Position numbers and translations under genes: made by a program
Assembly (NCBI RefSeq): GCF_030652235.1
Contig: NZ_JAUSBA010000050.1
Coordinates: forward strand, 38,403-102,402
Source: Cypionkella sp.
GTDB taxonomy: Bacteria; Pseudomonadota; Alphaproteobacteria; Rhodobacterales; Rhodobacteraceae
Length of the DNA: 64,000 bases
Direction of reading: 5' to 3'
Shown: positions 5,687-64,000 of the stretch, piece after piece
Position numbering within the stretch: position 1 is the first letter of the stretch
Layout of the letters: each line of letters opens with the position of its first letter
Notes under the pieces: generated by a model
The model's database searches: none
Seen by the model: only the letters and a program-made list of their open reading frames with translations
Told to the model about the DNA's origin: nothing

Positions 5687-7492
5687 TCAGCCCTTTGGCA
5701 AGTTGGGTTGCAGCGAGACATAAGTGCCAGGGGCGGCGCACAGCACCGGGCGGACCGAATCACCTGGAACGCGGGCGGGAATTTGCGTGCCGGATTGCGC
5801 GGCTAGCCATTCCCCCCAACGCGGCCACCAACTGCCCTGATTGAAGCTGGCGCTGGCCATCCAATCATCCGGCGCGCCCGCCACTGGACCTGCATTGGTG
5901 TAGTGGCCGTATTTGCCCTTTGAGGGTGGGTTGATGATGCCCGCGACATGGCCCGATTGCGAGACGATGAAGGTTTTGTCCTTGGACCCCATCTGCTTGA
6001 AGCCGTTAAAGCTGCCGCGCCAATGGGCGATATGGTCAGTCTCACAGGCGATGGCGCAGACCGGGATCTGGATGTCCTTCAGGCTGACGTTATGGCCGAA
6101 AACCTTATAAGTGCCCTGGGCCAAACCATCATCTTGGCAAAGGCCTCGCAGGTATTCGATCGCCATCTTGCAGGGCAGATTGGTGCCGTCGCCGTTCCAA
6201 TACAGCAGATCAAACGCGGGCGGAGCCTCACCCATCATATAGCTTTTGATTGCCGGGCCGTAGATGAGGTCATTGGAACGCAGATAGCTGAAGGTGCGAC
6301 TCATGAAGGTTTTAGACAGCATACCATCGGCAAGGCTTTGGCGCTCTATCCCATCAAGGAAATCATTGTCGAGGAATACGCCGACCTCGCCCGGATCAGA
6401 GAAATCGGTCAGCATGGTGAAGAAGGTCGCGGATTTCACCGAGGTGTCACCTGCACGGTGCAGGTGCGACAGCGTCAGGCTGAGGGTGGTGCCCGCGATG
6501 CAATAGCCGACCGCGTTGATCTGTTTTTCGTCGGTAATCCGGCGCACCTCGGCCATCGCGGTGAGGTAGCCCTCGCGGATGTATTCATCCATGCCGACAT
6601 CGGCATAGGACGCATCCGGATTAACCCACGAGACGATGAACAATGTGAAACCCTGATCGACGATCCATTTGATCAGCGAGTTTTCCGGCTTCAGATCCAT
6701 CACGTAGAATTTGTTGATCCACGGCGGGAAAATCAGCAAAGGCGTCTGGAAAACCGTTTTGGTGGTCGGGCTGTACTGGATCAGTTCCAGCATCCGGTTG
6801 CGGAACACCACTGATCCGGGGGTGGTGGCGATGTTTTCGCCCAATACAAACGCCTCACGGTCGGCCAAAGTCACGGCGAGTTCGCCGTTGTTGGCCTCGA
6901 TATCAGCGACGAGATTCTCAAGGCCGCGCACCAGACTTTCGCCATCGGTCGCCAAGGCTTTTTCCAAAGCATCCGGGTTGGTGCCCAGAAAATTGGTCGG
7001 CGACAGCATATCCACGATCTGTTTGGTGAAATATTCGACGCGCTTTTTGTCGCCGGGATCAATCGATTCCATATCGCCTACGGCATCGCGCACCGCTTCG
7101 GCATTGAACAAATATTGCTGTTTCAAGTAGTTGAAGGCAGGATGCGTGTCCCACAACGGGTTTGAGAACCGCCGATCCGTCGGGCCCGCATCGACGGGGG
7201 CCCTCAACTCACCGCTCGCCAAGGCAGCTTGGGCCTCGACATAATGCTTCATCGTCTTGCCCCAATAGGCAACCTGATGCTCCAGCACTTTCGCCGGATT
7301 CTGCATCATTCCGGCCAGATAGGCCGCGGCGGCTTTCAGATACATGTCTTGCCCCGGCCCCTGCACGCCGGGATCGGATGACTTTTTATTTGCCAAAGCT
7401 GCCATCAAACGTGCTGACAATGCTTCAATTTTGGCAAGATTAGCAGTCATCTTCTCTAATTTTGCACCTGCGGCATTGTCTTCGGTTGTCAT
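5687..7492 (-). CDS. phaC: Class I polyhydroxyalkanoate synthase
   Basis: Polymerises (R)-3-hydroxyacyl-CoA into PHA at the granule surface. At 601 residues it has the class I length. The N-terminal PhaC domain spans about 80-250 and the alpha/beta hydrolase part about 250-570. The lipase-like box GYCIAG gives catalytic Cys331; the Asp is in CETDHIAHW and the His in SQSGHVAGI near the C-terminus. It is divergent from the depolymerase gene phaZ, with a CTGC-N3-GCAG motif in the shared upstream region, and phaP and phaR follow it. Confidence 0.97.
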   Translation of the reverse strand: MTTEDNAAGAKLEKMTANLAKIEALSARLMAALANKKSSDPGVQGPGQDMYLKAAAAYLAGMMQNPAKVLEHQVAYWGKTMKHYVEAQAALASGELRAPVDAGPTDRRFSNPLWDTHPAFNYLKQQYLFNAEAVRDAVGDMESIDPGDKKRVEYFTKQIVDMLSPTNFLGTNPDALEKALATDGESLVRGLENLVADIEANNGELAVTLADREAFVLGENIATTPGSVVFRNRMLELIQYSPTTKTVFQTPLLIFPPWINKFYVMDLKPENSLIKWIVDQGFTLFIVSWVNPDASYADVGMDEYIREGYLTAMAEVRRITDEKQINAVGYCIAGTTLSLTLSHLHRAGDTSVKSATFFTMLTDFSDPGEVGVFLDNDFLDGIERQSLADGMLSKTFMSRTFSYLRSNDLIYGPAIKSYMMGEAPPAFDLLYWNGDGTNLPCKMAIEYLRGLCQDDGLAQGTYKVFGHNVSLKDIQIPVCAIACETDHIAHWRGSFNGFKQMGSKDKTFIVSQSGHVAGIINPPSKGKYGHYTNAGPVAGAPDDWMASASFNQGSWWPRWGEWLAAQSGTQIPARVPGDSVRPVLCAAPGTYVSLQPNLPKG

Positions 7493-7516
7493 GTTAATCT
7501 TTAGCCCCTATTCTTT

Positions 7517-7527
7517 CTGCTGTGCAG
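7517..7527. promoter_or_regulatory. CTGC-N3-GCAG site between phaC and phaZ
   Basis: CTGCTGTGCAG, followed by CAT as in the phaP palindrome, lies 25 nt upstream of the phaC start and 70 nt upstream of phaZ. It could let PhaR act on synthesis and degradation genes together; this is inferred from the motif. Confidence 0.55.
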
Positions 7528-7596
7528 CATAATGTCGCCCCGCCGCAAGGGCCCGACGACGATTGGGCCGGGGCCCCCTCCCCGTAAGGAATCGTG

Positions 7597-8955
7597 ATGA
7601 AGTATATGGCGACCTACGACCTTATGGAAAGCATTCGTAACACCAATGAGTGGATGGGCGCTACTGCGCGTGCCATGGCATCTTATCCGGCGTTCTCGAT
7701 GACGATGAGCCCGATGTTGAACGTGATGGCGGCTTGGGGAGAGGTGACCGAACGCAGCTTTGGCCGCATGGTGGTCAAGCCAGATTGGGGCATCCGATCG
7801 ATTCCAGGCCCTGACGCGCAAGACCATTTGGTTGATGTGGTGCCGGTGGTGGAGCGCGCTTTTGGTAGCCTGATGCAGTTCAAAGTGCGCAGGCGAGCAC
7901 CCATGGCCCGCAAAGTGATGCTGGTGGCCCCGATGTCGGGACATTATGCCACACTGCTGCGCTCGACCGTGTCCAGCCTGTTGCCGGACGCCGATGTCTA
8001 TATCACCGACTGGCACAATGCCCGCGACATACCAGTGTCGGAAGGCAAGTTCGATATCGAAGATTACACGCTGTATCTGGTTGATTTCATGCGCGCGCTT
8101 GGCCCCGATACCCATGTGATCGCGGTGTGCCAGCCAGCACCCTTGACCTTGGCCGCGACGGCTTATTTGGCCGCCGAAGACCCGGATGCGCAGCCGCGTT
8201 CGCTGACTTTGATCGGCGGGCCGATTGATCCCGATGCGGCGGCAACCGATGTCACCGACTTTGGCCGCCGAATCACCATGGGCCAGTTGGAGCAGATCGC
8301 CATCCAGCGTGTGGGCTTCAAATACAAAGGTGTCGGCCGTTTGGTCTATCCGGGTTTGCTGCAACTGCAAAGTTTCATGTCGATGAACGCCGAGCGCCAT
8401 AAGAAAGCGTTCAGCGACCAGATCATGCGGGTGGCGCAGGGCGATGCCTCGGATCACGACGCGCATAACCGCTTTTATGATGAATATCTGGCGGTGATGG
8501 ATATGACCGCCGAATTCTACCTTTCCACCGTCGAGCGGATCTTCAAGAATCGTGAGATCGCGAAAAATGAATTCATCGTCGCGGGCAAAAAGGTCGATAT
8601 CGGGGCGATCACTCGCGTTGCGGTCATGACGGTAGAGGGCGAGAATGATGACATTTCCGCCCCTGGCCAATGCGTCGCCGCGCTGGATATGCTGACCGGT
8701 CTGCCTGACAGCAAAAAGGCGCAACACCTTGAACCCGGCGCGGGCCATTACGGCATCTTCGCGGGCAAAAGCTGGCGGTTGAATATTCGGCCGTTGGTGT
8801 TGTCGTTCATTGACGCCAATTCGGGCGCAGCGCCTGTTGTTCAAGCGCCTGTTTCCGAAACATCCGTCGCCGCAGCATCGGCTGCCGAAGCACCTGTCAC
8901 CTCAGCCCCGGCTGCGAATGTCACCCGACTGGCTTCGGCAAAGTCCAAGCACTAA
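7597..8955 (+). CDS. phaZ: Intracellular PHA depolymerase
   Basis: Breaks down stored PHA inside the cell. A 452-residue protein of the PHB depolymerase family, with the nucleophile box VCQPAP (Cys178) instead of a serine lipase box, as in PhaZa1 of Ralstonia, and the His in GAGHYGIFAG near residue 390. The C-terminal 40 residues are a low-complexity A/P/V tail. ATG at 7597 is placed behind GTAAGGA; a GTG one codon earlier is the alternative. It is divergent from phaC and followed by a strong terminator. Confidence 0.94.
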   Translation: MKYMATYDLMESIRNTNEWMGATARAMASYPAFSMTMSPMLNVMAAWGEVTERSFGRMVVKPDWGIRSIPGPDAQDHLVDVVPVVERAFGSLMQFKVRRRAPMARKVMLVAPMSGHYATLLRSTVSSLLPDADVYITDWHNARDIPVSEGKFDIEDYTLYLVDFMRALGPDTHVIAVCQPAPLTLAATAYLAAEDPDAQPRSLTLIGGPIDPDAAATDVTDFGRRITMGQLEQIAIQRVGFKYKGVGRLVYPGLLQLQSFMSMNAERHKKAFSDQIMRVAQGDASDHDAHNRFYDEYLAVMDMTAEFYLSTVERIFKNREIAKNEFIVAGKKVDIGAITRVAVMTVEGENDDISAPGQCVAALDMLTGLPDSKKAQHLEPGAGHYGIFAGKSWRLNIRPLVLSFIDANSGAAPVVQAPVSETSVAAASAAEAPVTSAPAANVTRLASAKSKH

Positions 8956-48042: not shown

Positions 48043-48656
48043 TCCAACACACGCAGCCCATGCGGTGTGGTAAACGTCGCCCGCATCGCCTTCGCCACCC
48101 CCGGCACGATCACCACCCGGCGGTCGGTGAAAATGCTTGCAAGTGCAGCATTCAGCGCCTGCGCCTGCGGATGCGCTATCTCCAATCGCTGCAACCGCGC
48201 GCCACTTTCTGGCAAAGACTGCGCCGGGTGCAAAGACCCTGCCCATTCGATCAAAGCCGGGAAGCAACCGTCAAACGGCAGCTTGCCATCGCTGGGCACC
48301 ACCATCTGCCAGCGGTAATCTCCGCGCTGCAACGCCAACGGAATCCCCAACCCTTCCGGGCTGGCGGCCACTGCGGCACTTATACTATCACAACATGCAA
48401 CCCAGTTCGTGAGCCTCGCGCTGCCTTCGAAATTGTCTAAATCGAACCATCGCGGCCACAGCGGGGCTATCTGCGCCGGGTCCGCTGCGATCACCTCCAA
48501 GTACAGATCGCCAAGCCCCAACAGCCGGTTGTGCGTCGCCATATGCGGATGCTGACCGCCCCGCGCCAGCGCCACACCCAAAGCCGCCTCGACCGCAGCC
48601 ACCCCTTCAGCCAAATCCAGCGCCGATACTGCAAGGTGATCAAACCGCAGCATCAT
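48039..48656 (-). CDS. VOC/glyoxalase-like domain protein
   Basis: A 205-residue protein with a VOC-type fold of the Glyoxalase_3-like group (LRFDHLAVSALDLAEGVAAV near the start, then GDLYLEVIAAD, and the second module from about residue 110). The first His and the Glu of VOC metal sites are present, but its substrate is unknown. ATG 48656 overlaps the stop of the ppx gene by four bases, and its stop overlaps the GNAT start. Confidence 0.82.
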   Translation of the reverse strand: MMLRFDHLAVSALDLAEGVAAVEAALGVALARGGQHPHMATHNRLLGLGDLYLEVIAADPAQIAPLWPRWFDLDNFEGSARLTNWVACCDSISAAVAASPEGLGIPLALQRGDYRWQMVVPSDGKLPFDGCFPALIEWAGSLHPAQSLPESGARLQRLEIAHPQAQALNAALASIFTDRRVVIVPGVAKAMRATFTTPHGLRVLE

Positions 48657-50188
48657 GGCTGGACCCCCAAGCTGGTTTGCGCCTTCAATGCCTGCGCCAG
48701 CGAGTTAAACCGCGCCTCGGCGACCTCGCCAAACAGCCCGCGGCCTTCTTCGGTCAGTTGCAGTTCCAGCAGCCGCGTCGCGGGCTGCCACACCATGCGT
48801 CCCGCCCGCCGCGGATCGCCGACCGAAAACATCGCACCAAACCGCATCGCCTTGCCCAGAACTTCCGCGTCCAGCAGCTCATCTTCGCGCAGCAGCTTGA
48901 ACAAAGGCTCCATCCGCGAGCCATTGCGGCTATTTTTATAGCGGTGCAGCAGCGCCAGCCCCAAAAATACCCGGCCCGGATGATCCAAACCGCCCAAATT
49001 CGCCCGTGTGGCATTGTCAAAACACGCCTCGGCGCGATAATCTGGGTGCGCCCGCCATGTCGTGTCATGCAGCAAACAGGCGGTCTTGATCAGCCGCAGC
49101 CGCTCCTCACTCACCTCGGGGAACAAAGGCAGCAGAAATTCATACAGCTTTTTACCAAACCCAGGTATCCGCGACGAGAGCTTTTCTGCCATCCGCGCCG
49201 CCTCAATCAGCGGGTCGCGCGCGCGCAGTTTTTCCGGCATCTGCTCAAACAACAGCCCCTCGCGGATGCCATAAGCCGAGACGTCAATCTCCGAAGGTTT
49301 CAGCATCTTGATCAGCTCGCGCATCACCTCGCAGGCCAGCGGCACCAGCTCCATCCGCTCCACCCCAGTGCCAGTTTTGCTGCGCAACTGGCTTAGATCG
49401 CTGGCGGCAATCCAATCCATCGTTTCCAGCAAGTCCTTGGGCAGCATACGATATTCATGCAAAACCGTCAGCGGATAGCCGCGCCGCTCCATATCCAACC
49501 GCGCGATCACCCGCCAAGAGCCGCCCACCAGATAGATCCGCTCGCCTTCCGAATTCAACTTCGCCTGACAGTCCTTCAAAATCCGGTCGATGTGGGCTGC
49601 ACGCTTTTTCGGCGTGTCGCCAACCTGCTGCAATCGGAAAGGCCCCAACGGTGTTGATACCCGTTGCCCCACCGTGCCACCGCCGATTTTCGCCAGTTCC
49701 ATCGAGTTGCCGCCAATATCGCAGACAATGCCCTTCGCATCTGGCCAGCCCAAAAGCACGCCTTGGGCCGACAGCCGGGCTTCTTCGTCGCCGTCCACCA
49801 CCCAAATTTTCAACCCGGTCTGCGCCAACACTTCGGCCTGAAACTCTGGACCATCGGACGCTTCCCGCGCAGCAGCGGTTGCCACCACCGTCAGCGTCTC
49901 AATCCCCATCCCCTTTGCCAGCAACGAGAATCTTTTCAGAGCCAGCAGCGCCCGCCGCCGCCCTTCCGGGTTCAGCTTGCCGGTTTCGGCCAACCCCTTA
50001 CCCAGACCGCACATCAGTTTTTCGTTGTAGAAATACGCCGGTGAGCGCGCAGCGCCATCAAACACTACCATCCGCACCGAGTTTGATCCAACATCCACCA
50101 CGCCCACGCGGCTTAGCGCCCGCGCCGAAGCGTCGTCGAACAAGGGGCGGCCGAATGGGCCGTGGTCGTCGTCATGGTCTTCGCTCAT
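48653..50188 (-). CDS. ppx: Exopolyphosphatase (Ppx/GppA family)
   Basis: Releases phosphate from polyphosphate (or converts pppGpp to ppGpp). The 511 residues have the two-part ASKHA ATPase fold: VGVVDVGSNSVRMVVFDG at about 28-45 and GIVCDIGGNSMELAKIGGGT near 140-160, then an HD-like C-terminal helical domain (LLHDTTWRAHPDYRAEACF). ATG 50188 was preferred to the one at 50209. It lies 51 nt downstream of ppk, so synthesis and breakdown are encoded together. Confidence 0.93.
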   Translation of the reverse strand: MSEDHDDDHGPFGRPLFDDASARALSRVGVVDVGSNSVRMVVFDGAARSPAYFYNEKLMCGLGKGLAETGKLNPEGRRRALLALKRFSLLAKGMGIETLTVVATAAAREASDGPEFQAEVLAQTGLKIWVVDGDEEARLSAQGVLLGWPDAKGIVCDIGGNSMELAKIGGGTVGQRVSTPLGPFRLQQVGDTPKKRAAHIDRILKDCQAKLNSEGERIYLVGGSWRVIARLDMERRGYPLTVLHEYRMLPKDLLETMDWIAASDLSQLRSKTGTGVERMELVPLACEVMRELIKMLKPSEIDVSAYGIREGLLFEQMPEKLRARDPLIEAARMAEKLSSRIPGFGKKLYEFLLPLFPEVSEERLRLIKTACLLHDTTWRAHPDYRAEACFDNATRANLGGLDHPGRVFLGLALLHRYKNSRNGSRMEPLFKLLREDELLDAEVLGKAMRFGAMFSVGDPRRAGRMVWQPATRLLELQLTEEGRGLFGEVAEARFNSLAQALKAQTSLGVQP

Positions 50189-50239
50189 AGGTATTTCCGT
50201 TCGGGTCATTCAGCCGTAAAACTTGATGTCACATCGGCC

Positions 50240-52402
50240 TCAGGAAAGGTTTCGCACATCCTTCGCGCCCGCCTTACCGCGACCGGACAGCGAGGGATTC
50301 TCCATAAAGAAGCGGTGACAGTTGAAAGCGCTGCCGTCCACAGGCACCTGCTCCCGCTTGTAGGCACCACCGGGTTGCAACACCCAGGATTGTGTCTCAT
50401 CGGCAAGATTGGCGGCCATAATCTGCCCGACAATCTGCGCCTGCACGGTTGGATTGTGGATTTCCACCAAAGTCTCCACCCGCCGCGTCAGATTGCGCCC
50501 CATCCAATCCGCCGAGGAAATAAACACCCGCGCCTGCTTTGACGGCAGCCCGTGACCATTGCCAAAACAGATGATCCGGCTGTGCTCTAGGAAGCGCCCG
50601 ACGATGGATTTCACCCGAATATTCTCGGACAAGCCCTTGATTCCGGGGCGAACCCCGCAAATTCCGCGCACCACAAGGCTGACCTTCACCCCGGCTTTCG
50701 AGGCCGCATAGAACGCGTCGATCACATCCGGGTCGATCAGCGAATTGACCTTGCCCCAAATTTCCGCAGGCCGTCCGGCGCGAGCATGATCCGCCTCGGT
50801 GGCAATCATCTCCAGCAGCCGCGATTTCAGGGTGAACGGAGAAATTGCAAGATTTTCAAGACCTTGCGGCTCAACGTAGCCCGACAGATAGTTAAACACC
50901 CGCGTCGCATCGCGCCCCAAAGCGGCATCACAGGTGAAGAAACTAAGGTCTGTGTAGACCTTCGCGGTGATCGGGTGGTAATTTCCAGTGCCGTAATGGG
51001 TGTAGGTGACCAGATTTTCACCCTCACGCCGCACCACCGTACTGATTTTGGCGTGGGTTTTGTAGTTCATAAAGCCATAAACCACATGCGCTCCGGCGCG
51101 CTCCAACCGCCGCGATTGCCGGATGTTGGCCGCCTCATCAAACCGGGCTTTCAACTCGACCAGCGCCGTCACCGACTTGCCCGCCTCCGCCGCTTCGCAC
51201 AAAGCGGCAACGATCGGGCTGTCCCAAGAGGTGCGATAGAGCGTCTGTTTGATCGCCAGCACATTCGGATCACGGGCCGCCTGTTCCAGATAATTGATCA
51301 CCAAATCAAAGGTTTCATAGGGGTGATGCAGCAGAATATCCTTCTGCTTGATCGCCGCAAACAGATCGCCGCCATGGTCCTGCACCCGTTCCGGCACCCG
51401 TGGGGTGAAGCGTGGCCAGAGCAGATCAGGCCGAGACGACAACACCAGTTCCCTCAGATCAGCCACGCCCAAAAGCCCGCGCACCTCGACCATTTCATCG
51501 GGCGTCACACTCAGTTCTTCCATGATCAGCGCGCGCAATTCGGGCGGCGCACCCGACGACAGCTTTAGGCGAATGACTTCGCCGCGCCGCCGCCGCTTAA
51601 GTGCGGTTTCAAACTCGCGCACCAGATCTTCGGCCTCATCCTCGACCTCAAGATCACTGTCGCGCAGCACCCGGAACAGGCAATGCCCGCGATCTTTGTA
51701 GCCCGGAAACAACATATCCAGATGGATCAGCAGCAGTTCTTCCAGCGGCAAAAACCGATATTCGCCGTCTTTGTCGGGCAACCGCACAAACCGCGCAATC
51801 TGCTGCGGAATCGGCAAAAGCGCTTGCAGGCTGCGATGATCAGTCTCGCGCTCCAGCTGCAAGGCCAGCGAAAATCCGGTGTTGGGAATGAATGGAAAGG
51901 GATGCGCCGGGTCAATCGCGAGGGGCGACAAAACCGGGAACACCTTGTTCAGAAAGTGATCTTCCAGAAATTTCAGATCGCGCCCCGTCAGCTTGGAGCG
52001 CGTCAGCAGGGTGATCCCCTGCACATCCATCAGCTTTTTCAGCTTGTTGAACACCGCCTGCTGGGTGTGCATCAAGCGCCGGGCGTTGGCATGGATCAGC
52101 GTCAGCTGTTCGGCAGCCGAGCGGCCATCCTCGGAAGGCGTGAGATTCCGCGCCCGCACCTTGGCGCGCAGACCCGCCACCCGGACGGTGTAAAACTCAT
52201 CTAGGTTCGTCGCCGAGATCGACAAAAACCGCAGCCGCTCCAACAGCGGCACAGCGGGGTTTGACGCCTCATCCAGCACCCGCCAGTTGAACGCCAACCA
52301 ACTGAGCTCTCGGTTGAAAAACCGTCGCGGGCCGGTGATTTCGGCCTCGGGCACCTCAACAGCGGCGGGGAAGTCGTGCTTCAGAAAATCGGATTGGGTC
52401 AT
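50240..52402 (-). CDS. ppk: Polyphosphate kinase 1
   Basis: Reversibly makes polyphosphate from ATP. The 720 residues show the PPK1 domains: N-terminal [17 protein letters not shown] (about 28-45), the middle and head domains, and the catalytic C-terminal parts with the phospho-histidine region [17 protein letters not shown] and [20 protein letters not shown] (in part). It follows hdaA by about 45 nt and leads ppx, all leftward. Polyphosphate made here could be the cargo of the CHAD/CYTH proteins encoded at 60.9-63.7 kb. Confidence 0.96.
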
Positions 52403-52446
52403 CGGGCCTTCATACTGATCAAAGGTAACGGCAGGGTGGCATAGTC

Positions 52447-53118
52447 TCACCCCACAACGGTCAAGTCCAGCACCTCAGCGGCCAAAGCCCGCGTCACCGG
52501 GCGGCCATGCGCCAACGCGCGGGCGTCGAGAAACTTCACCCATTCGCGCGCGGCAGCGAAGGATCGGTCCATCCGCGACACCAGATACGAGATCAGGTTC
52601 GGCGCAACCACAATCTGGCGATCCGCGAACAGTTTGATCAGCACCGCCGACAGCAGCATATCATCTGGCGGGTCCAGTTGTGCCACACCCGCTGCCTGCA
52701 TCCGGCTCAGCAGATCCGGCAGGTCCAAGCCCCAATCCCGCGGCGGGCTGGTCGCTGTCACCAACAAACCCCGCCCTGCCAGCAGATTGTGCAGATGAAA
52801 CAGCGCCACCTCGGCCTGCGTGTCGCCCGCGATGCGATCAGCATTCTCCACCGCCACCGGGTGCTGCGCCAGATGATGCAGATCGACCTCCGGCAGCTTG
52901 GCAGCCGAAATCACCTCGGCCCCCGCCATCTCGGCCCAGACGTGTGCAAGATGCGTCTTGCCCGCGCCTTCCGGCCCCACCAGCACCAGCTTGCCGCCCG
53001 GCCAGCCGCGCCACGCCTCTACCGCCGCCAAAGCCTGCGCATTGGCATCCGAGACAAAGAAATCCGCCCGCCTGAACGCTTCACCGCTGGGCAGATCAAA
53101 GGCCAGCTGCAAGGTCAC
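52447..53118 (-). CDS. hdaA: DnaA-related regulatory protein HdaA
   Basis: A 223-residue AAA+ protein homologous to DnaA but without the DNA-binding domain IV. It carries Walker [17 protein letters not shown] (about 49-64) and the N-terminal [20 protein letters not shown] with the likely clamp-binding QLAFDLP motif. Proteins of this kind stimulate DnaA-ATP hydrolysis together with the sliding clamp and so limit re-initiation of replication. Its start overlaps the perM stop by four bases and ppk follows. Confidence 0.88.
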
Positions 53119-59479: not shown

Positions 59480-59706
59480 CTACCTGTCACATACCGGAAG
59501 GTGATATGGCTGTTTCTGAAACCACTCTGGCTTCAGCTTGTACCAGCCTTCACCGCCTGCAAGGGCGTCTTGCTGCCCAAGGCTGACTGCGGCAGCAGTT
59601 GGTTGTAGTGCAACACATAGCGGTGCAGCGTGGCTTCCAGTCCCTCGCCCGAACGGATGTGGTGGCTTTGCAGCATCACTTCGAACTGACCGTTGAAGCG
59701 CTTTAC
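59480..59706 (-). pseudogene. IS481-type transposase, 3' remnant
   Basis: Only the end of an integrase-core transposase remains: VKRFNGQFEVMLQSHHIRSG, LHRYVLHYNQLLPQSALGSK and TPLQAVK, followed in a second frame by WYKLKPEWFQKQPYHLPVCD and a stop at 59480. A frameshift near 59545 joins the two. There is no catalytic core and no clear inverted repeat. It marks the left edge of the AT-rich region. Confidence 0.72.
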
Positions 59707-60238
59707 CCGCCGCACCCACAGCCTGATCGAGGGCGAGCGCATCAGGTAAGCCGAATAAACCTCCAGCGCCTTCGCCAGAGAAGGCACACGGTCAAGCGGC
59801 ACTTTGTTGCAACGACATTCGGCGCACCCCGCTAACTCTTTATTACGATCGGATTTGATGATCGGATCGACTGACAGATCGATGATGGACCGCTCCGCCG
59901 GAGCATCCGTCGTTCGGGCCGCTACTCGCTCGAAGCAAAGAAAAACCTCTCCTTGCGCCTTTTTGCCTATTTTTTGCGGTGAAGCCCGTGGCTGACAGCC
60001 CGCTTGCGGGCGGCCCATTAAAGCGACCGCTACCACCGGCTTTGCAACGCTCGTAGGACGGCAACTGTCATTCGGTCTCCTTGCTGGCAAATATTGCTCT
60101 CAAAAAAACCAGAGCAAAACCGCGACAGGTCCAAGGCGCAGGATTTGCTAAGTAAGTTCAGATATCAATTGCCAGACGCATTTTCTATTGCATTTTCCCA
60201 TAACGCATATACAAAGTATATACAAATGGAGCGAAAAT
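59707..60238. other. Region without a recognisable gene upstream of the RHH gene
   Basis: About 530 nt. Open stretches exist on both strands but none shows a family motif. From about 60090 the base use becomes more AT-rich. The last 60 nt form the promoter of the RHH gene and hold the repeats at 60207-60226. Confidence 0.5.
60207..60226. promoter_or_regulatory. Repeats in the promoter of the RHH gene (possible operator)
   Basis: Two direct copies of ATATACAAA (60207-60215 and 60218-60226) that also form the inverted repeat ATATAC-AAA-GTATAT. They end 12 nt before the RHH start. Ribbon-helix-helix proteins commonly bind such short tandem or inverted sites in their own promoters. Confidence 0.5.
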
Positions 60239-60577
60239 ATGAGCAAACAAAAAGCAGACGGCAAAGACAAGAAGAAGAGCAGCCAACTTGTCATTCGGCT
60301 GGACAAGACCGAGCGGGATGTCTTCGTGAAGCTCTGTGAGCGGATGCATACCAGTGCCGCCCGCGAAATACGTCGGTTCATGCGCGAGTTTGTCAGCGCA
60401 AACTCGGTCAGTGAACTTGGTGCTGGCGTAGAATTGGAAACCGCTGTGGTTCCGCAAGCGCCCGACGACGCGCCGGTCCTTGACGCAATGGCAGCGCCTG
60501 AACCCGAATCGCCAGTCGAAGTTGCCGTAGACGAAACAGATAGACCCAAGAAGAAGCCGAAGCGCGTGCAGCAATAA
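60239..60577 (+). CDS. Ribbon-helix-helix (Arc/ParG-like) protein
   Basis: A 112-residue protein. A lysine-rich flexible N-terminus (MSKQKADGKDKKKSS, 1-15) leads into a ribbon-helix-helix core at about 16-50 (QLVIRLDKTERDVFVKLCER, then SAAREIRRFMREFV). The rest (about 55-112) is acidic and Pro/Ala-rich, ending in a basic KKKPKRVQQ. A basic tail before an RHH fold recalls ParG/Omega proteins, which both bind centromere repeats and stimulate ParA. A ParA-type gene lies two genes downstream. The ribosome site is weak. Simple autorepressor is the alternative. Confidence 0.72.
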   Translation: MSKQKADGKDKKKSSQLVIRLDKTERDVFVKLCERMHTSAAREIRRFMREFVSANSVSELGAGVELETAVVPQAPDDAPVLDAMAAPEPESPVEVAVDETDRPKKKPKRVQQ

Positions 60578-60865
60578 GAGGCTTGCTCGGCGCTTTCGCG
60601 CCGCCAGCTAAGCCGCCCGAAGTCAGGTGATCCACCTGTTTTTGCGTGCCCGCACATAAAGATATTCTGTTACTACTATCCTGCGTAACCGGCCTTGTGG
60701 TTTCTAATTGTGATCATCAGCAGAGCGGATTCCGGCAACAGGTGCCCGCAACAATTTGCGTCAGCGCCGCAGGACGAAGGTCTCAAGGCAGCTGAAACTG
60801 GATCGAACCATTCTGTCTTGAAAGTGGCGTCGACCGTCTGAACATACCAGAAAGACCCATGCATC
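60578..60865. other. Gap between RHH and CHAD genes
   Basis: 288 nt with a small hairpin (GGCGCTTTCGCGCC near 60590) and no supported gene. A separate promoter for the CHAD-ParA-CYTH unit may lie here. Confidence 0.45.
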
Positions 60866-62392
60866 ATGCAATCCGAGAGCGATTGTTACTATTTGCCAGC
60901 ACGCGCAATTGACACCTTAGCCGGAGGAGCCTTCGGAAGGCTGACCCCCATGCTGACTTTGACAGAAGGTGCGACCCAATTTACCGTGCTCGATTACTTC
61001 GACGAGTCTTTGCGCCGCGCTGGCCGGTTACTTCTGGAGACCGGCCCTATACTTGAGCTGCTGATGGCCGATGGTCACGTGCTTTCCCAAGCGGCCAAAC
61101 GTAGCGGGCAGTTCGTTGCTGATCTGCAAGAGGGACAGGTCAAACACGCCCTCGCGGATTTATCACCCCTGCGCAGTTTGTTGCCGATAGGGTCTGGCAA
61201 CTTGCGCAAGGGAACACTTGCTCTGCTGGATGATGACCAAAAGACCCATTGTCGCGCGAATCTGTACATGCTGTCCGACACGGGCGGAGCGGGCGTAATT
61301 CTAATTACTTTACACGGTCTACGTGGCTATGACAAATCACTTGCCGCGCTGCGCGCGCAGATCCGCGATTGCGACGGCACCGCATTGAGCAGTGGTGGAC
61401 TATATGCAAACCTATTTCCCAAGCATGTCGCATATAATGCAAAACCAAAGGTTATCATCGAGTCTGATGCGACCACATACCAAGCCGCCAGCGATATCAT
61501 CTCAACCTATCTGTCAGTAGCGCGCGCCAACGAGGGCGGCATTCGTGCAGACTGCGACTCCGAATTTCTGCACGACTATCGCATCGCGATGCGCAAAATC
61601 CGCTCGGTTCTGAGCCTTTTTAAAGGGGTTTATGAGCAAGATCAGACCATTGACCTTAAGGCTAGATTTGTTGATCTGATGGCCCCGACAGGGCGGCTTC
61701 GCGATCTGGATGTCTATTTACAGGAGAAGCAGCGGTTTTATGACCTTTTGCCGCAAACCCTGTACAGCGGCCTGGACACGATGTTCGGGATGTTCAGCGA
61801 AGAGAGAAACCGCGAGAAAACCAAACTGACAGATCACTTGCACAGCATCAAATATGCGGACGAGATATCAAGTCTTGCGAAACTGTTTGCAAAACGCAAA
61901 AAGCTGAGATCTGGACCGACAGCGGCGCTCAAGGTGGATGGCTATGCCTGCAACCTGATCTGGAAACGCTACCGAAAAATCTGCAAAATTGGTGGTGCTA
62001 TCGCGCCTGAAATGCCCGATGTCGAGGTGCACGCGCTGCGTATTCATTGCAAGAAACTGCGCTACCTGATGGAATTTTTCAGCCCGCTTTTTGCGAAGCC
62101 AGAGTTCAAAGACCTGCTCAGACCGCTAAAGCATTTGCAGGACAATCTTGGGCTGTTCAATGACTACTCGATTCAACAGATTAGCCTGCAAGACTTTCTT
62201 CGGCAAGCAAATGACTGGGCCAATGACACCAAACTGCATGTCGCTCAAAGCGTCGGCGCACTGACGGCCGTGCTACATCTTCGGCAGATCGAGGAACGAG
62301 CGAAGATTGTCGACAGCTTCGCGCTGTTCAACAGCCTGCAAACCCAATCGACATTCCGTGAGCTGTTTCACGACGGAAGGCCCAAGTCATGA
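60866..62392 (+). CDS. CHAD-domain protein with degenerate CYTH-like N-terminus
   Basis: A 508-residue protein. The C-terminal half (about 210-495) is a CHAD domain: repeated helices with conserved basic/His patches, FLHDYRIAMRKIRSVLSLFK, GRLRDLDVYLQ, VEVHALRIHCKKLRYLMEFF and LKHLQDNLGLFNDYSI. CHAD domains bind polyphosphate and target it. Residues about 25-185 resemble a CYTH fold in strand order (VLDYFDESLRRAGRLLLE, CRANLYMLSD) but lack the ExExK motif, so they are probably not catalytic. Its stop overlaps the parA-type start (ATGA). Confidence 0.85.
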   Translation: MQSESDCYYLPARAIDTLAGGAFGRLTPMLTLTEGATQFTVLDYFDESLRRAGRLLLETGPILELLMADGHVLSQAAKRSGQFVADLQEGQVKHALADLSPLRSLLPIGSGNLRKGTLALLDDDQKTHCRANLYMLSDTGGAGVILITLHGLRGYDKSLAALRAQIRDCDGTALSSGGLYANLFPKHVAYNAKPKVIIESDATTYQAASDIISTYLSVARANEGGIRADCDSEFLHDYRIAMRKIRSVLSLFKGVYEQDQTIDLKARFVDLMAPTGRLRDLDVYLQEKQRFYDLLPQTLYSGLDTMFGMFSEERNREKTKLTDHLHSIKYADEISSLAKLFAKRKKLRSGPTAALKVDGYACNLIWKRYRKICKIGGAIAPEMPDVEVHALRIHCKKLRYLMEFFSPLFAKPEFKDLLRPLKHLQDNLGLFNDYSIQQISLQDFLRQANDWANDTKLHVAQSVGALTAVLHLRQIEERAKIVDSFALFNSLQTQSTFRELFHDGRPKS

Positions 62393-63141
62393 AAATCATC
62401 GCCTGTTATTCAAACAAGGGCGGCGTGGGCAAAACCGCAACCTCGGTCAATTTAGCCTATGCCTTCGCCGCAGCGGGAAAACGCATATTGTTGTGCGACC
62501 TGGATCCCCAAGGCGCTTCAAGTTTCTACTTCCGCGTGAAGCCCTCAAAAAAACTGACCGAGGCAAGCTTCTTCGAGGATGTTGAAAAGTTTACTAAAGC
62601 GATCAGAGGCAGCGACTACGACAATCTTGATGTCCTGCCCGCGAATATGGGTTTTCGGGATTTCGACGTATTCCTGTCACGCATGCGAGACAGCCGTTCG
62701 CGCCTGAAAAAGGCGCTGGCCGCCGTCAAAGGCGATTATGATGTTATCCTGCTGGATTGTCCGCCCAATATCTCTGCCCTGTCAGAAAACGTGTTTCGCG
62801 CTGCAGATGCCATTCTTGTTCCCGTGATCCCAACGACGCTTTCCCATAGAACCTTCGAGCAGCTTGTGGACTTTTTCAAGGAGAACGACCTTCCGCTAAA
62901 GAAGCTGCACGGGTTCTATTGCATGGTGCAGGGTGTCAAGTCCCTGCATAGTGAGACCATCGACGCGATGAACCATGTCTATCAAAAATGGTTTATGACG
63001 GCGCAGATCCCGTTTGCGTCAGATATCGAACGCATGGGTCTGCACCGTGCTCCCGTCATGGCCTCTGCGCCAAACAGCTTGGCGAGCAAGGCGTATCAGG
63101 CGCTTTACCAAGAAGTCATAAAGCGGGTGGCAGGTGTATGA
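62389..63141 (+). CDS. ParA-family ATPase
   Basis: A 250-residue Walker-type ATPase of the ParA/MinD family, which uses ATP-dependent DNA or surface binding to space out cargo. The deviant Walker A is SNKGGVGKTATSVN (residues 8-21) with the signature lysine, then CDLDPQGASS and VILLDCPPNISALSENV (Walker B). It has no N-terminal helix-turn-helix, as in type Ib plasmid ParA and orphan cargo-positioning ParAs (McdA-like). It overlaps the CHAD gene upstream and the CYTH gene downstream by ATGA, so the three are made together. Confidence 0.9.
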   Translation: MKIIACYSNKGGVGKTATSVNLAYAFAAAGKRILLCDLDPQGASSFYFRVKPSKKLTEASFFEDVEKFTKAIRGSDYDNLDVLPANMGFRDFDVFLSRMRDSRSRLKKALAAVKGDYDVILLDCPPNISALSENVFRAADAILVPVIPTTLSHRTFEQLVDFFKENDLPLKKLHGFYCMVQGVKSLHSETIDAMNHVYQKWFMTAQIPFASDIERMGLHRAPVMASAPNSLASKAYQALYQEVIKRVAGV

Positions 63142-63540
63142 ATGAGAATGTCCCAGTCGAGATCGAGCGCAAGTTTTGGTACTAGCCCTACCCAACCTAC
63201 AGGACCTGACGCCGGTTCAGGTGCGTCAAGGCTTTCTCACATCAGCCGATGACTCGGTTGAAGTCCGTCTGCGTCAAATGGGCGAAGCTTGTTTCATAGC
63301 ACTGAAATCAGGCGCGGGGTTGGTGCGATCAGAATATGAGGTTCCGATCACACCAGTCGCAGTTCAATGCGCTTGTGGCCCGCAACGCAGCGTCGGCGCC
63401 TCGAAAAGACCCGCTACCAAGGCAGTTTAGGTCATGAGCGGGCCTTTGAATTAGACATATTTTTGGGGAGGTTGCCTCCTTTGATACTGGTGGAAGTCGA
63501 ATTCTCTGCCGTCAAAGCTGCGATTGACTTTACTGAGCTC
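63138..63540 (+). pseudogene. CYTH-domain (triphosphate tunnel) protein, frameshifted
   Basis: Begins with MNENVPVEIERKFW, the CYTH signature ExExK (EIERK), but hits TAG at codon 16; adding one G in the GG run at 63177-63179 would restore VLALPNLQDLTPVQVRQGFL. Further CYTH parts are in other frames: SVEVRLRQMGEACFIALKSG, then QFNALVARNAAS, then RLEKTRYQGSLGHERAFELD and ILVEVEFSAVKAAIDF. At least three slips (about 63178, 63361, 63402). After about 63540 family likeness is lost. The ATG overlaps the parA stop, so it once closed the operon. CYTH proteins act on triphosphates or polyphosphate. Confidence 0.8.
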
Positions 63541-63708
63541 GCCCTGATTAATGTTCATCGCATTGATTTTGCTATAGGAAGTGGCGTTTTTTCTCGTGTT
63601 GAGGTGCAAGGTTTAGTAGGATTTCGGTTGAAACCCTGCAATTTCGGTTCTGGTCATGAAGCACCGCCCACCCCCCGAGCAACAAGACGACCTGCTGCGT
63701 CCGCGCCT
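63541..63708. other. Region between CYTH remnant and IS3 element
   Basis: No gene supported. It may contain the displaced or degraded 3' end of the CYTH gene. The IS end begins near 63709. Confidence 0.4.
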
Positions 63709-64000
63709 TGAATAGCCCCTAGATTTGTAGACGCCTTGCTTGGTAATTTTGGAAGCAAGGAGGACGAGATGTCCGCAAACAAATTCACAGACGAGTTCAA
63801 GCGCGATGCAGTGGCCCAAGTCGAGGATCGGGGCTATCCGGTGCGCGAGGTGGCCGAGAGGCTTGGGGTCAGCACCAAGTCGATCTATACGTGGCAGAAG
63901 CAGTTTTCGCGACCTGCGAAGGTGATCCAGGAGGTCGATGCTCAGGCTGACGAGATCCGCCGCCTCAAGCGCGATTTGGCGCGGGTCACGGAGGAGCGGG
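63709..64000 (+). mobile_element. IS3-type insertion sequence, left part (cut by window end)
   Basis: The presumed left end TGAATAGCCCCTAGATTTGT lies 60 nt ahead of a transposase OrfA gene and has the TGAA-CCCC look of IS3-group terminal repeats. The right end is outside the window, so the boundary and target duplication cannot be confirmed. Confidence 0.6.
63769..64000 (+). CDS. IS3-family transposase OrfA (partial)
   Basis: First 77 residues of an OrfA protein: a helix-turn-helix of the transposase_8 type (FTDEFKRDAVAQVEDRGYPV, REVAERLGVSTKSIYTWQKQ) followed by the start of a leucine-zipper-like coil (ADEIRRLKRDLARVTEER), which continues past the window. AAGGAGG is placed well ahead of ATG 63769. 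The OrfB integrase part would follow downstream by frameshift. Confidence 0.9.
   Translation, partial: MSANKFTDEFKRDAVAQVEDRGYPVREVAERLGVSTKSIYTWQKQFSRPAKVIQEVDAQADEIRRLKRDLARVTEER

What the first reader, a model, noticed from the sequence alone, without database searches (positions are those of the whole stretch)
60207..63700. RHH - CHAD - ParA - CYTH module: candidate polyphosphate-granule positioning system
A ribbon-helix-helix gene is followed by three genes joined by ATGA overlaps (62389-62392 and 63138-63141): a CHAD protein, a ParA-family ATPase and a CYTH protein. CHAD domains are known to bind polyphosphate and localise to its granules; CYTH proteins hydrolyse triphosphates and polyphosphate; ParA-type ATPases without an HTH space plasmids, carboxysomes and other cargo. 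I infer that CHAD is the cargo adaptor, ParA spreads the granules on the nucleoid, and RHH regulates or partners ParA. I know of no named system with this composition. Alternative: a type Ib plasmid partition pair (ParA plus RHH) that picked up CHAD/CYTH genes.
Basis: partly seen in the sequence, partly recalled or inferred. Interest (0 to 1): 0.82.

Follow-up and report, generated by a model that had tools for sequence, protein, structure and literature searches.

The report
ParA motor for polyphosphate granules
A gene set found in many Proteobacteria puts a protein of the polyphosphate-binding CHAD family directly beside a ParA-type ATPase, and is predicted to use ATP to space out and share the cell's phosphate-storage granules, which would be an energy-driven positioning machine for a granule not known to have one; in this window's copy a fourth gene (CYTH) is broken.

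Summary
Real and conserved. The window holds RHH (60239-60577), CHAD (60866-62392) and ParA (62389-63141); the CYTH gene from 63138 is broken. In the 80 genome loci kept (of 372 relatives), CHAD lies directly upstream of ParA in 80 of 80 and an intact CYTH follows in 55. The CHAD protein has a degenerate, TTM-like N-terminal half and keeps the six mapped core polyP-contact residues. RHH genes of two families stand before CHAD, each with its own palindrome (TGACGTCA or GTATATAC), rare in the genomes tested: RHH is probably the operon's autorepressor. RHH is intact in only 43 of 80 loci, so ParA's constant partner is CHAD. Plasmid partition is disfavoured: the one plasmid read in full has its own RepA/RepB. 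Best reading: a ParA-type ATPase positions polyP granules through CHAD (about 0.55); no localisation data exist. In print: a folD-ppk-parA-CHAD cluster in Acidithiobacillus (PMC10892726, PMC6416229), not linked to positioning in the parts I saw. A 2025 review leaves open whether polyP granule positioning costs energy. A new variant of a known kind.

The parts
60207..60226 (.). Probable RHH-2 operator: direct repeat ATATACAAA at 60207-60215 and 60218-60226 (11-bp period), holding the palindrome GTATATAC at 60216-60223, 15 bp before the RHH start codon
   Evidence: GTATATAC is the only copy in the window; present upstream in 7 of 7 other RHH-2 loci, 0 of 36 RHH-1, 0 of 8 remnant, 0 of 29 RHH-less loci, 2 of 1303 background segments; 3 places in the own 4.8-Mb genome, 10 for the reversed control pattern
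60239..60577 (+). RHH-2 gene (112 aa): lysine-rich N-terminal tail, RHH-like fold, low-complexity C-terminal tail
   Evidence: Pfam RHH_9 E 0.013, below cut-off; relatives directly before CHAD in 7 other loci; 145 relatives in the protein database; model with two helices
60624..60638 (+). Terminator-like hairpin followed by T run, between RHH and CHAD
   Evidence: Consensus scan only, within the number expected by chance
60866..62392 (+). CHAD gene (508 aa): TTM-like N-terminal half without ExExK (about residues 1-190), CHAD domain (about 191-506)
62389..63141 (+). ParA-type ATPase (250 aa), ATGA overlap with CHAD
   Evidence: K10, K15, D39, D123 in 66 of 66 aligned core ParAs; beside CHAD in 80 of 80 loci
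63138..63711 (+). Broken CYTH gene (remnant): ATG with ATGA overlap, stop after 15 codons, later pieces in two other frames
59533..60090 (-). Flanking IS-type transposase remnant (rve_3-like)
   Evidence: Pfam E 5e-05, 23.3 bits against a cut-off of 26.5
63736..63999 (+). Flanking transposase-like ORF running off the contig end
   Evidence: ORF, named by eye; contig end

Best explanation
A conserved operon couples a CHAD-family (polyphosphate-binding) protein to a ParA-type ATPase, and the pair is likely an ATP-driven system that positions and partitions polyphosphate granules on the nucleoid, with CHAD predicted to be the cargo adaptor. Shown here: the conserved CHAD-ParA pair, the ATPase motifs, the conserved polyP-contact residues, a CYTH gene after ParA in most loci looked at, and an RHH gene of one of two kinds with a matching palindrome upstream. 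Inferred: ATP-bound ParA would dimerise and bind nucleoid DNA non-specifically; CHAD would coat granules and stimulate ParA's ATPase, so that ParA is cleared nearby and granules follow the ParA gradient, as carboxysomes do with McdA/McdB; RHH would repress its own operon; CYTH, where intact, would hydrolyse tri- or polyphosphate at the granule. In this genome CYTH is broken, so at most the RHH-CHAD-ParA part works here.
For: CHAD directly upstream of ParA in 80 of 80 kept loci, 19 of 19 family hits (some are the same loci), 6 of 6 Paracoccus plasmids, in hosts as far apart as Rhodobacterales, Alcaligenaceae and Nitrosomonas. ParA and CHAD identities correlate 0.716 over 66 loci, permutation maximum 0.207 (shared descent can also cause this). 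Six core residues whose mutation weakens polyP binding in CtCHAD are invariant in 18 of 18 relatives. Deviant Walker motifs in 66 of 66. RHH-1 found nowhere in 11 of 11 RHH-less genomes searched and RHH-2 in 2 of these 11, so in 9 of 11 ParA has no RHH of either kind and CHAD is the partner left. CHAD proteins localise to polyP granules (cited in passages of PMC6537752 and PMC9239181). Gene neighbourhood predicted the cargo of five ParA/MinD ATPases tested in Halothiobacillus (PMC10241942, passages). A 2025 review leaves open whether polyP granule localisation uses energy (PMC13052382, passages).
Confidence: 0.55

Rival explanations
1. ParA is a nucleotide-driven switch on the CHAD/CYTH complex (polyP or triphosphate turnover, granule size, stress or metal response) rather than a spatial positioner.
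For: CHAD enhances the polyphosphatase activity of ygiF (abstract of PMC6537752); a CYTH gene follows in 55 of 80 loci, and NUDIX is annotated next in 4 of 6 plasmid copies; a copper phenotype is reported for ygiF loss in E. coli (PMC10892726, passages).
Against: CYTH is absent or broken in 25 of 80 loci with CHAD-ParA kept, though 4 of these 25 have under 900 bases downstream; the CHAD protein's own TTM-like half lacks ExExK, so no enzyme is always present for ParA to switch.
Confidence: 0.22
2. RHH is ParA's activating partner, as ParG is for ParF, and CHAD only links granules to a ParA-RHH complex, perhaps tying granules to the DNA site at the operon.
For: Both RHH families have a lysine-rich N-terminal tail, the usual form of ParA partners (PMC12204374, passages), and a matching DNA palindrome; one RHH-1 protein matches Pfam ParG at E 0.047, below cut-off.
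Against: An intact RHH beside CHAD is missing in 37 of 80 loci; RHH kind or presence changes at least 15 times on the ParA tree (60 rows); 9 of 11 RHH-less genomes have neither kind anywhere at E 0.001.
Confidence: 0.1
3. A type Ib plasmid or island partition cassette (ParA plus RHH) that picked up CHAD and CYTH; its cargo is its own DNA.
For: ParA without HTH, RHH gene with palindromic site, IS remnants around the window copy, six copies on Paracoccus plasmids.
Against: pKGP1 has its own RepA/RepB beside the module; loci lie on large contigs such as a 4.1-Mb one (L047); the site is one or two palindromes, not an array; RHH is often missing; close plasmid ParAs without CHAD were not seen: the next best are at 42% identity or less, two of which were read and lack CHAD.
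Confidence: 0.06

Closest known systems
McdA/McdB carboxysome positioning and other ParA/MinD cargo systems
   Same: A ParA-type ATPase encoded beside a protein of its likely non-DNA cargo; intact deviant Walker motifs here
   Different: Cargo protein is a CHAD (polyP) protein; no carboxysome gene family is a conserved neighbour; nucleoid binding and ATPase stimulation untested. That cyanobacterial McdA lacks the signature lysine, present here, is recalled
Acidithiobacillus folD-ppk-parA-CHAD cluster (PMC10892726 section 3.3, PMC6416229 passage)
   Same: A parA gene near a CYTH-CHAD gene, with ppk1
   Different: Reported as gene context for copper resistance or cAMP signalling; gene order and ParA kinship to this clade not tested here; no RHH or separate CYTH mentioned in the parts I saw
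AlgP in Pseudomonas aeruginosa (PMC9239181, passages)
   Same: Needed for even spacing of polyP granules
   Different: Histone H1-like DNA-binding protein; no ATPase named in the passages seen
ParF-ParG and delta-omega type Ib partition (features recalled)
   Same: Short ParA, RHH protein with basic tail, RHH autoregulation likely
   Different: RHH lies before CHAD rather than after parA, is often missing, and has one or two palindromes rather than an array
E. coli YgiF (TTM-CHAD polyphosphatase)
   Same: TTM-like half followed by CHAD
   Different: The TTM-like half here lacks ExExK and is not recognised by Pfam CYTH; in loci with CYTH a separate gene carries the EIERK motif

Membership tests
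ParA/MinD ATPases (ParA branch) | Deviant Walker A with signature and catalytic lysines, Walker A' and B aspartates | tested here: met
   K10, K15, D39, D123 in 66 of 66 rows; AAA_31 E 1.5e-41
ParA/MinD cargo-positioning systems | Encoded beside its cargo or adaptor gene | tested here: met
   CHAD upstream in 80 of 80 kept loci
ParA/MinD cargo-positioning systems | ATP-dependent nucleoid binding, partner-stimulated ATPase, cargo mislocalised without the ATPase | not testable with these tools
   Needs biochemistry and microscopy
McdAB systems | Encoded with carboxysome or BMC genes | tested here: not met
   Besides CHAD, ParA, CYTH, RHH and shadow ORFs no neighbour family occurs in more than 22 of 80 loci; no BMC model was run
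Type Ib plasmid partition | RHH centromere-binding protein always paired with ParA | tested here: not met
   Intact RHH beside CHAD in 43 of 80 loci
Type Ib plasmid partition | Array of centromere repeats | tested here: not met
   One or two palindromes upstream; GTATATAC at 3 places in the own genome
Type Ib plasmid partition | Needed for stability of its replicon | not testable with these tools
   Indirect: pKGP1 has separate RepA/RepB
CHAD polyP-binding proteins (phosins) | CHAD fold with the basic polyP-contact residues | tested here: met
CHAD polyP-binding proteins (phosins) | Localises to polyP granules | not testable with these tools
   Shown for other CHAD proteins only
CYTH/TTM phosphatases (N-terminal half of the CHAD protein) | TTM fold | tested here: inconclusive
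CYTH/TTM phosphatases (N-terminal half of the CHAD protein) | ExExK motif | tested here: not met
   No ExExK in the N-terminal half (sequence)
RHH DNA-binding proteins (window gene) | Ribbon-helix-helix fold | tested here: inconclusive
   Pfam RHH_9 below cut-off; two-helix monomer model, mean pLDDT 64.6; no PDB relative at E below 0.9

The most novel reading that the evidence does not exclude
Bacteria carry a horizontally mobile, ATP-driven partition machine for polyphosphate granules: a ParA dedicated to an inorganic-polymer cargo, using a catalytically dead TTM-CHAD protein as granule adaptor and activator, controlled by exchangeable RHH repressors that each bring their own operator, and often paired with a CYTH phosphatase that trims the granule.
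Probability: 0.45. Interest if true: 0.87.

Novelty: new variant of a known kind. Interest (0 to 1): 0.74.

Why it matters
How polyP granules are placed and inherited is open: a 2025 review says that the proteins behind granule positioning in Caulobacter are unidentified, and that it remains to be seen whether energy is spent on polyP granule localisation (PMC13052382, passages). This operon gives a specific candidate that can be tested in bacteria such as Paracoccus denitrificans, and would extend ParA/MinD positioning to a storage polymer. It also offers a natural experiment in regulator exchange: two RHH families with two palindromes on one conserved core.

Tried and rejected
PPK co-occurrence: of 42 genomes (own plus 41 of the 80), 34 have PPK1, 41 PPK2, and each has at least one; but PPK1 is in 305 of 398 of the phylum sample, so this is no evidence. 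ppk1 and ppx near the module in this window (48653-52450; Pfam; ppk1 ends 7.8 kb before the RHH gene): no PPK1 or PPX ORF was found in the 80 loci, but their flanks reach only 7 kb from ParA, less than the distance here; in 7 of 7 other genomes where an RHH hit marks the module (G398, G399, G404, G411, G415, G417, G433), PPK1 is on another contig. So the proximity here is probably chance.

RHH as genome-wide anchor: disfavoured; GTATATAC has 3 places in the own genome against 10 for the reversed control; the RHH-1 double site (up to 1 mismatch) is in 15 of 20 RHH-1 genomes, 2 of 11 RHH-less ones, with 3 control hits in 31 genomes, and a perfect match occurs at one place in each of 6 genomes.

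Defence system: PADLOC gave only two weak ParA matches (PDC-M28B models, residues 3-39 at E 2.4e-7 and 4-82 at E 0.0012). None of the 25 NCBIfam rows shown of 36 reached its cut-off for ParA; none for CHAD, CYTH or the RHH proteins. RHH profiles gave no convincing PDB relative.

Sister ParAs without CHAD: the ORFs beside 19 ParA loci were listed, 17 of them without CHAD; no shared cargo emerged. The CHAD label needs 3 changes on the tree: four CHAD-linked rows (L086, L087, L094, L095) lie outside the 86-row group, so one origin is neither shown nor excluded. The tree left out 15 close relatives, mostly Ruegeria. Several loci are identical to loci, so their counts must not be added. A ParA-CHAD complex prediction was not possible with the tools.

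Literature: searched; no listing showed a ParA-based polyP positioning system. Only open-licence PMC papers are held, so absence in print is not shown.

Full report
What is in the window. An RHH-like gene at 60239-60577, a CHAD gene at 60866-62392, a ParA gene at 62389-63141 overlapping it by ATGA, and from 63138 the start of a CYTH gene that stops after 15 codons, with CYTH-like pieces in two other frames. IS-type remnants lie on both sides and the contig ends at the window end. The genome has one CHAD match.

Conservation. A scan of the species-genome collection with a profile of this ParA matched 390 stretches, 372 of which encode a relative; the best 80 were kept, so the counts below are for close relatives. 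All 80 have CHAD directly upstream on the same strand. Intact CYTH follows in 55 of 80 (53 by motif, plus L045 and L060 by profile); L018 is broken, and L026, L038, L039, L067 have under 900 bases downstream. In 295 genomes of the window's family, 19 have the ParA at E 1e-60 or better; all 19 have CHAD beside it and 11 an intact CYTH match. In 398 genomes across the phylum, 68 have a ParA hit at E 1e-40 or better and 202 a CHAD. Of the 30 best of 69 ParA places, 7 have CHAD within the 1.5-kb flanks and 23 do not; the other 39 places were not fetched. So the linkage marks one ParA subfamily plus a few deeper rows, not ParAs at large. A quick tree of 115 rows agrees: 86 rows in one group (SH-aLRT 99) are all CHAD-linked, and 4 CHAD-linked rows fall outside it. 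Among those, L086 has a CYTH gene on the opposite strand after ParA and L087 a histidine phosphatase.

Spread. The kept loci come from Rhodobacterales, Hyphomicrobiales, Alcaligenaceae and Nitrosomonas among others. For Nitrosomonas (L010, L023) a Hyphomicrobiales MAG (L036) and Paracoccus loci are among the nearest rows for both ParA and CHAD, so the pair seems to travel together. ParA and CHAD identities correlate 0.716 over 66 loci (maximum of 500 permutations 0.207), though shared descent alone can do this.

RHH and palindromes. Directly before CHAD, 36 of 80 loci have a short RHH gene (RHH-1), 8 have remnants of it, 7 have the window's kind (RHH-2) and 29 have neither. TGACGTCA lies upstream in 32 of 36 RHH-1 loci, 3 of 8 remnants, 0 of 7 RHH-2, 0 of 29 RHH-less, 11 of 1303 background segments; GTATATAC in 7 of 7 RHH-2 loci and the window, 0 of 73 others, 2 of 1303 background segments. 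With one mismatch allowed TGACGTCA is common in background (260 of 1303) and says little. In the own genome GTATATAC has 3 places, one of them 15 bp before the RHH start codon. Regulator and palindrome change together and are lost together, which points to autoregulation. RHH-1 was not found anywhere in 11 of 11 RHH-less genomes searched; RHH-2 was found in 2 of these 11, and I did not determine how far from the module. All 7 RHH-2 loci lack an intact CYTH, as does the window, though two of them (L026, L039) have short downstream sequence.

Plasmids. Of 85 plasmid records with a match, six, all Paracoccus, carry a close ParA (62-70%); all six have CHAD before and CYTH after it, four with NUDIX next. 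The next best ParA is at 42% (H7, neighbourhood not read); H8 and H10 lack CHAD. pKGP1, whose 96 listed features were all read, has its own RepA and RepB; its annotated CHAD gene is short (390 codons), so that copy may be damaged.

Mechanism. The simplest model is a McdAB-like system with CHAD as granule adaptor. That ParA/MinD gene neighbourhoods point to the cargo was tested in Halothiobacillus (PMC10241942, passages). The missing basic tail on CHAD is the main sequence-level objection; the basic tail on RHH keeps a two-partner variant alive. Positioning itself is inference.

Known and new. Two papers report parA near a CHAD gene in Acidithiobacillus together with ppk1 (PMC10892726, section 3.3 and passages; PMC6416229, one passage); in what I saw they do not propose granule positioning. 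A 2025 review lists AlgP for Pseudomonas and leaves energy use open (PMC13052382, passages).

Noticed in passing
window 48653-52450: ppx (48653-50209, minus) and ppk1 (50240-52450, minus), confirmed by Pfam, lie 7.8 kb before the RHH gene; probably chance.
   Followed up: partly
window 5687-8955: ORFs that look by eye like a polyhydroxyalkanoate synthase (5687-7492, minus) and a PHA depolymerase (7594-8955, plus): the window also holds genes of a second storage granule (not scanned).
   Followed up: no
L113, L136, L137, L138, L139: On Paracoccus plasmids a NUDIX gene follows CYTH in L113, L136, L137, L138, and a second annotated CYTH gene lies further down in L137, L138 and L139.
   Followed up: no
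L017 4195-4530 and 5296-5487: A Falsochrobactrum locus carries both RHH kinds before CHAD.
   Followed up: no
L141 about 1225: One of the two other GTATATAC places in the own genome lies between two divergent small ORFs that look by eye like Arc-type RHH genes.
   Followed up: partly
L013: A contig titled Enemella (Actinomycetota) has a ParA identical to that of L116, a genome of the window's family: probably mislabelled or contaminated.
   Followed up: no
L087 2271-2783: In a deep CHAD-ParA locus the next gene is a histidine phosphatase (His_Phos_1, E 6e-12) instead of CYTH.
   Followed up: partly
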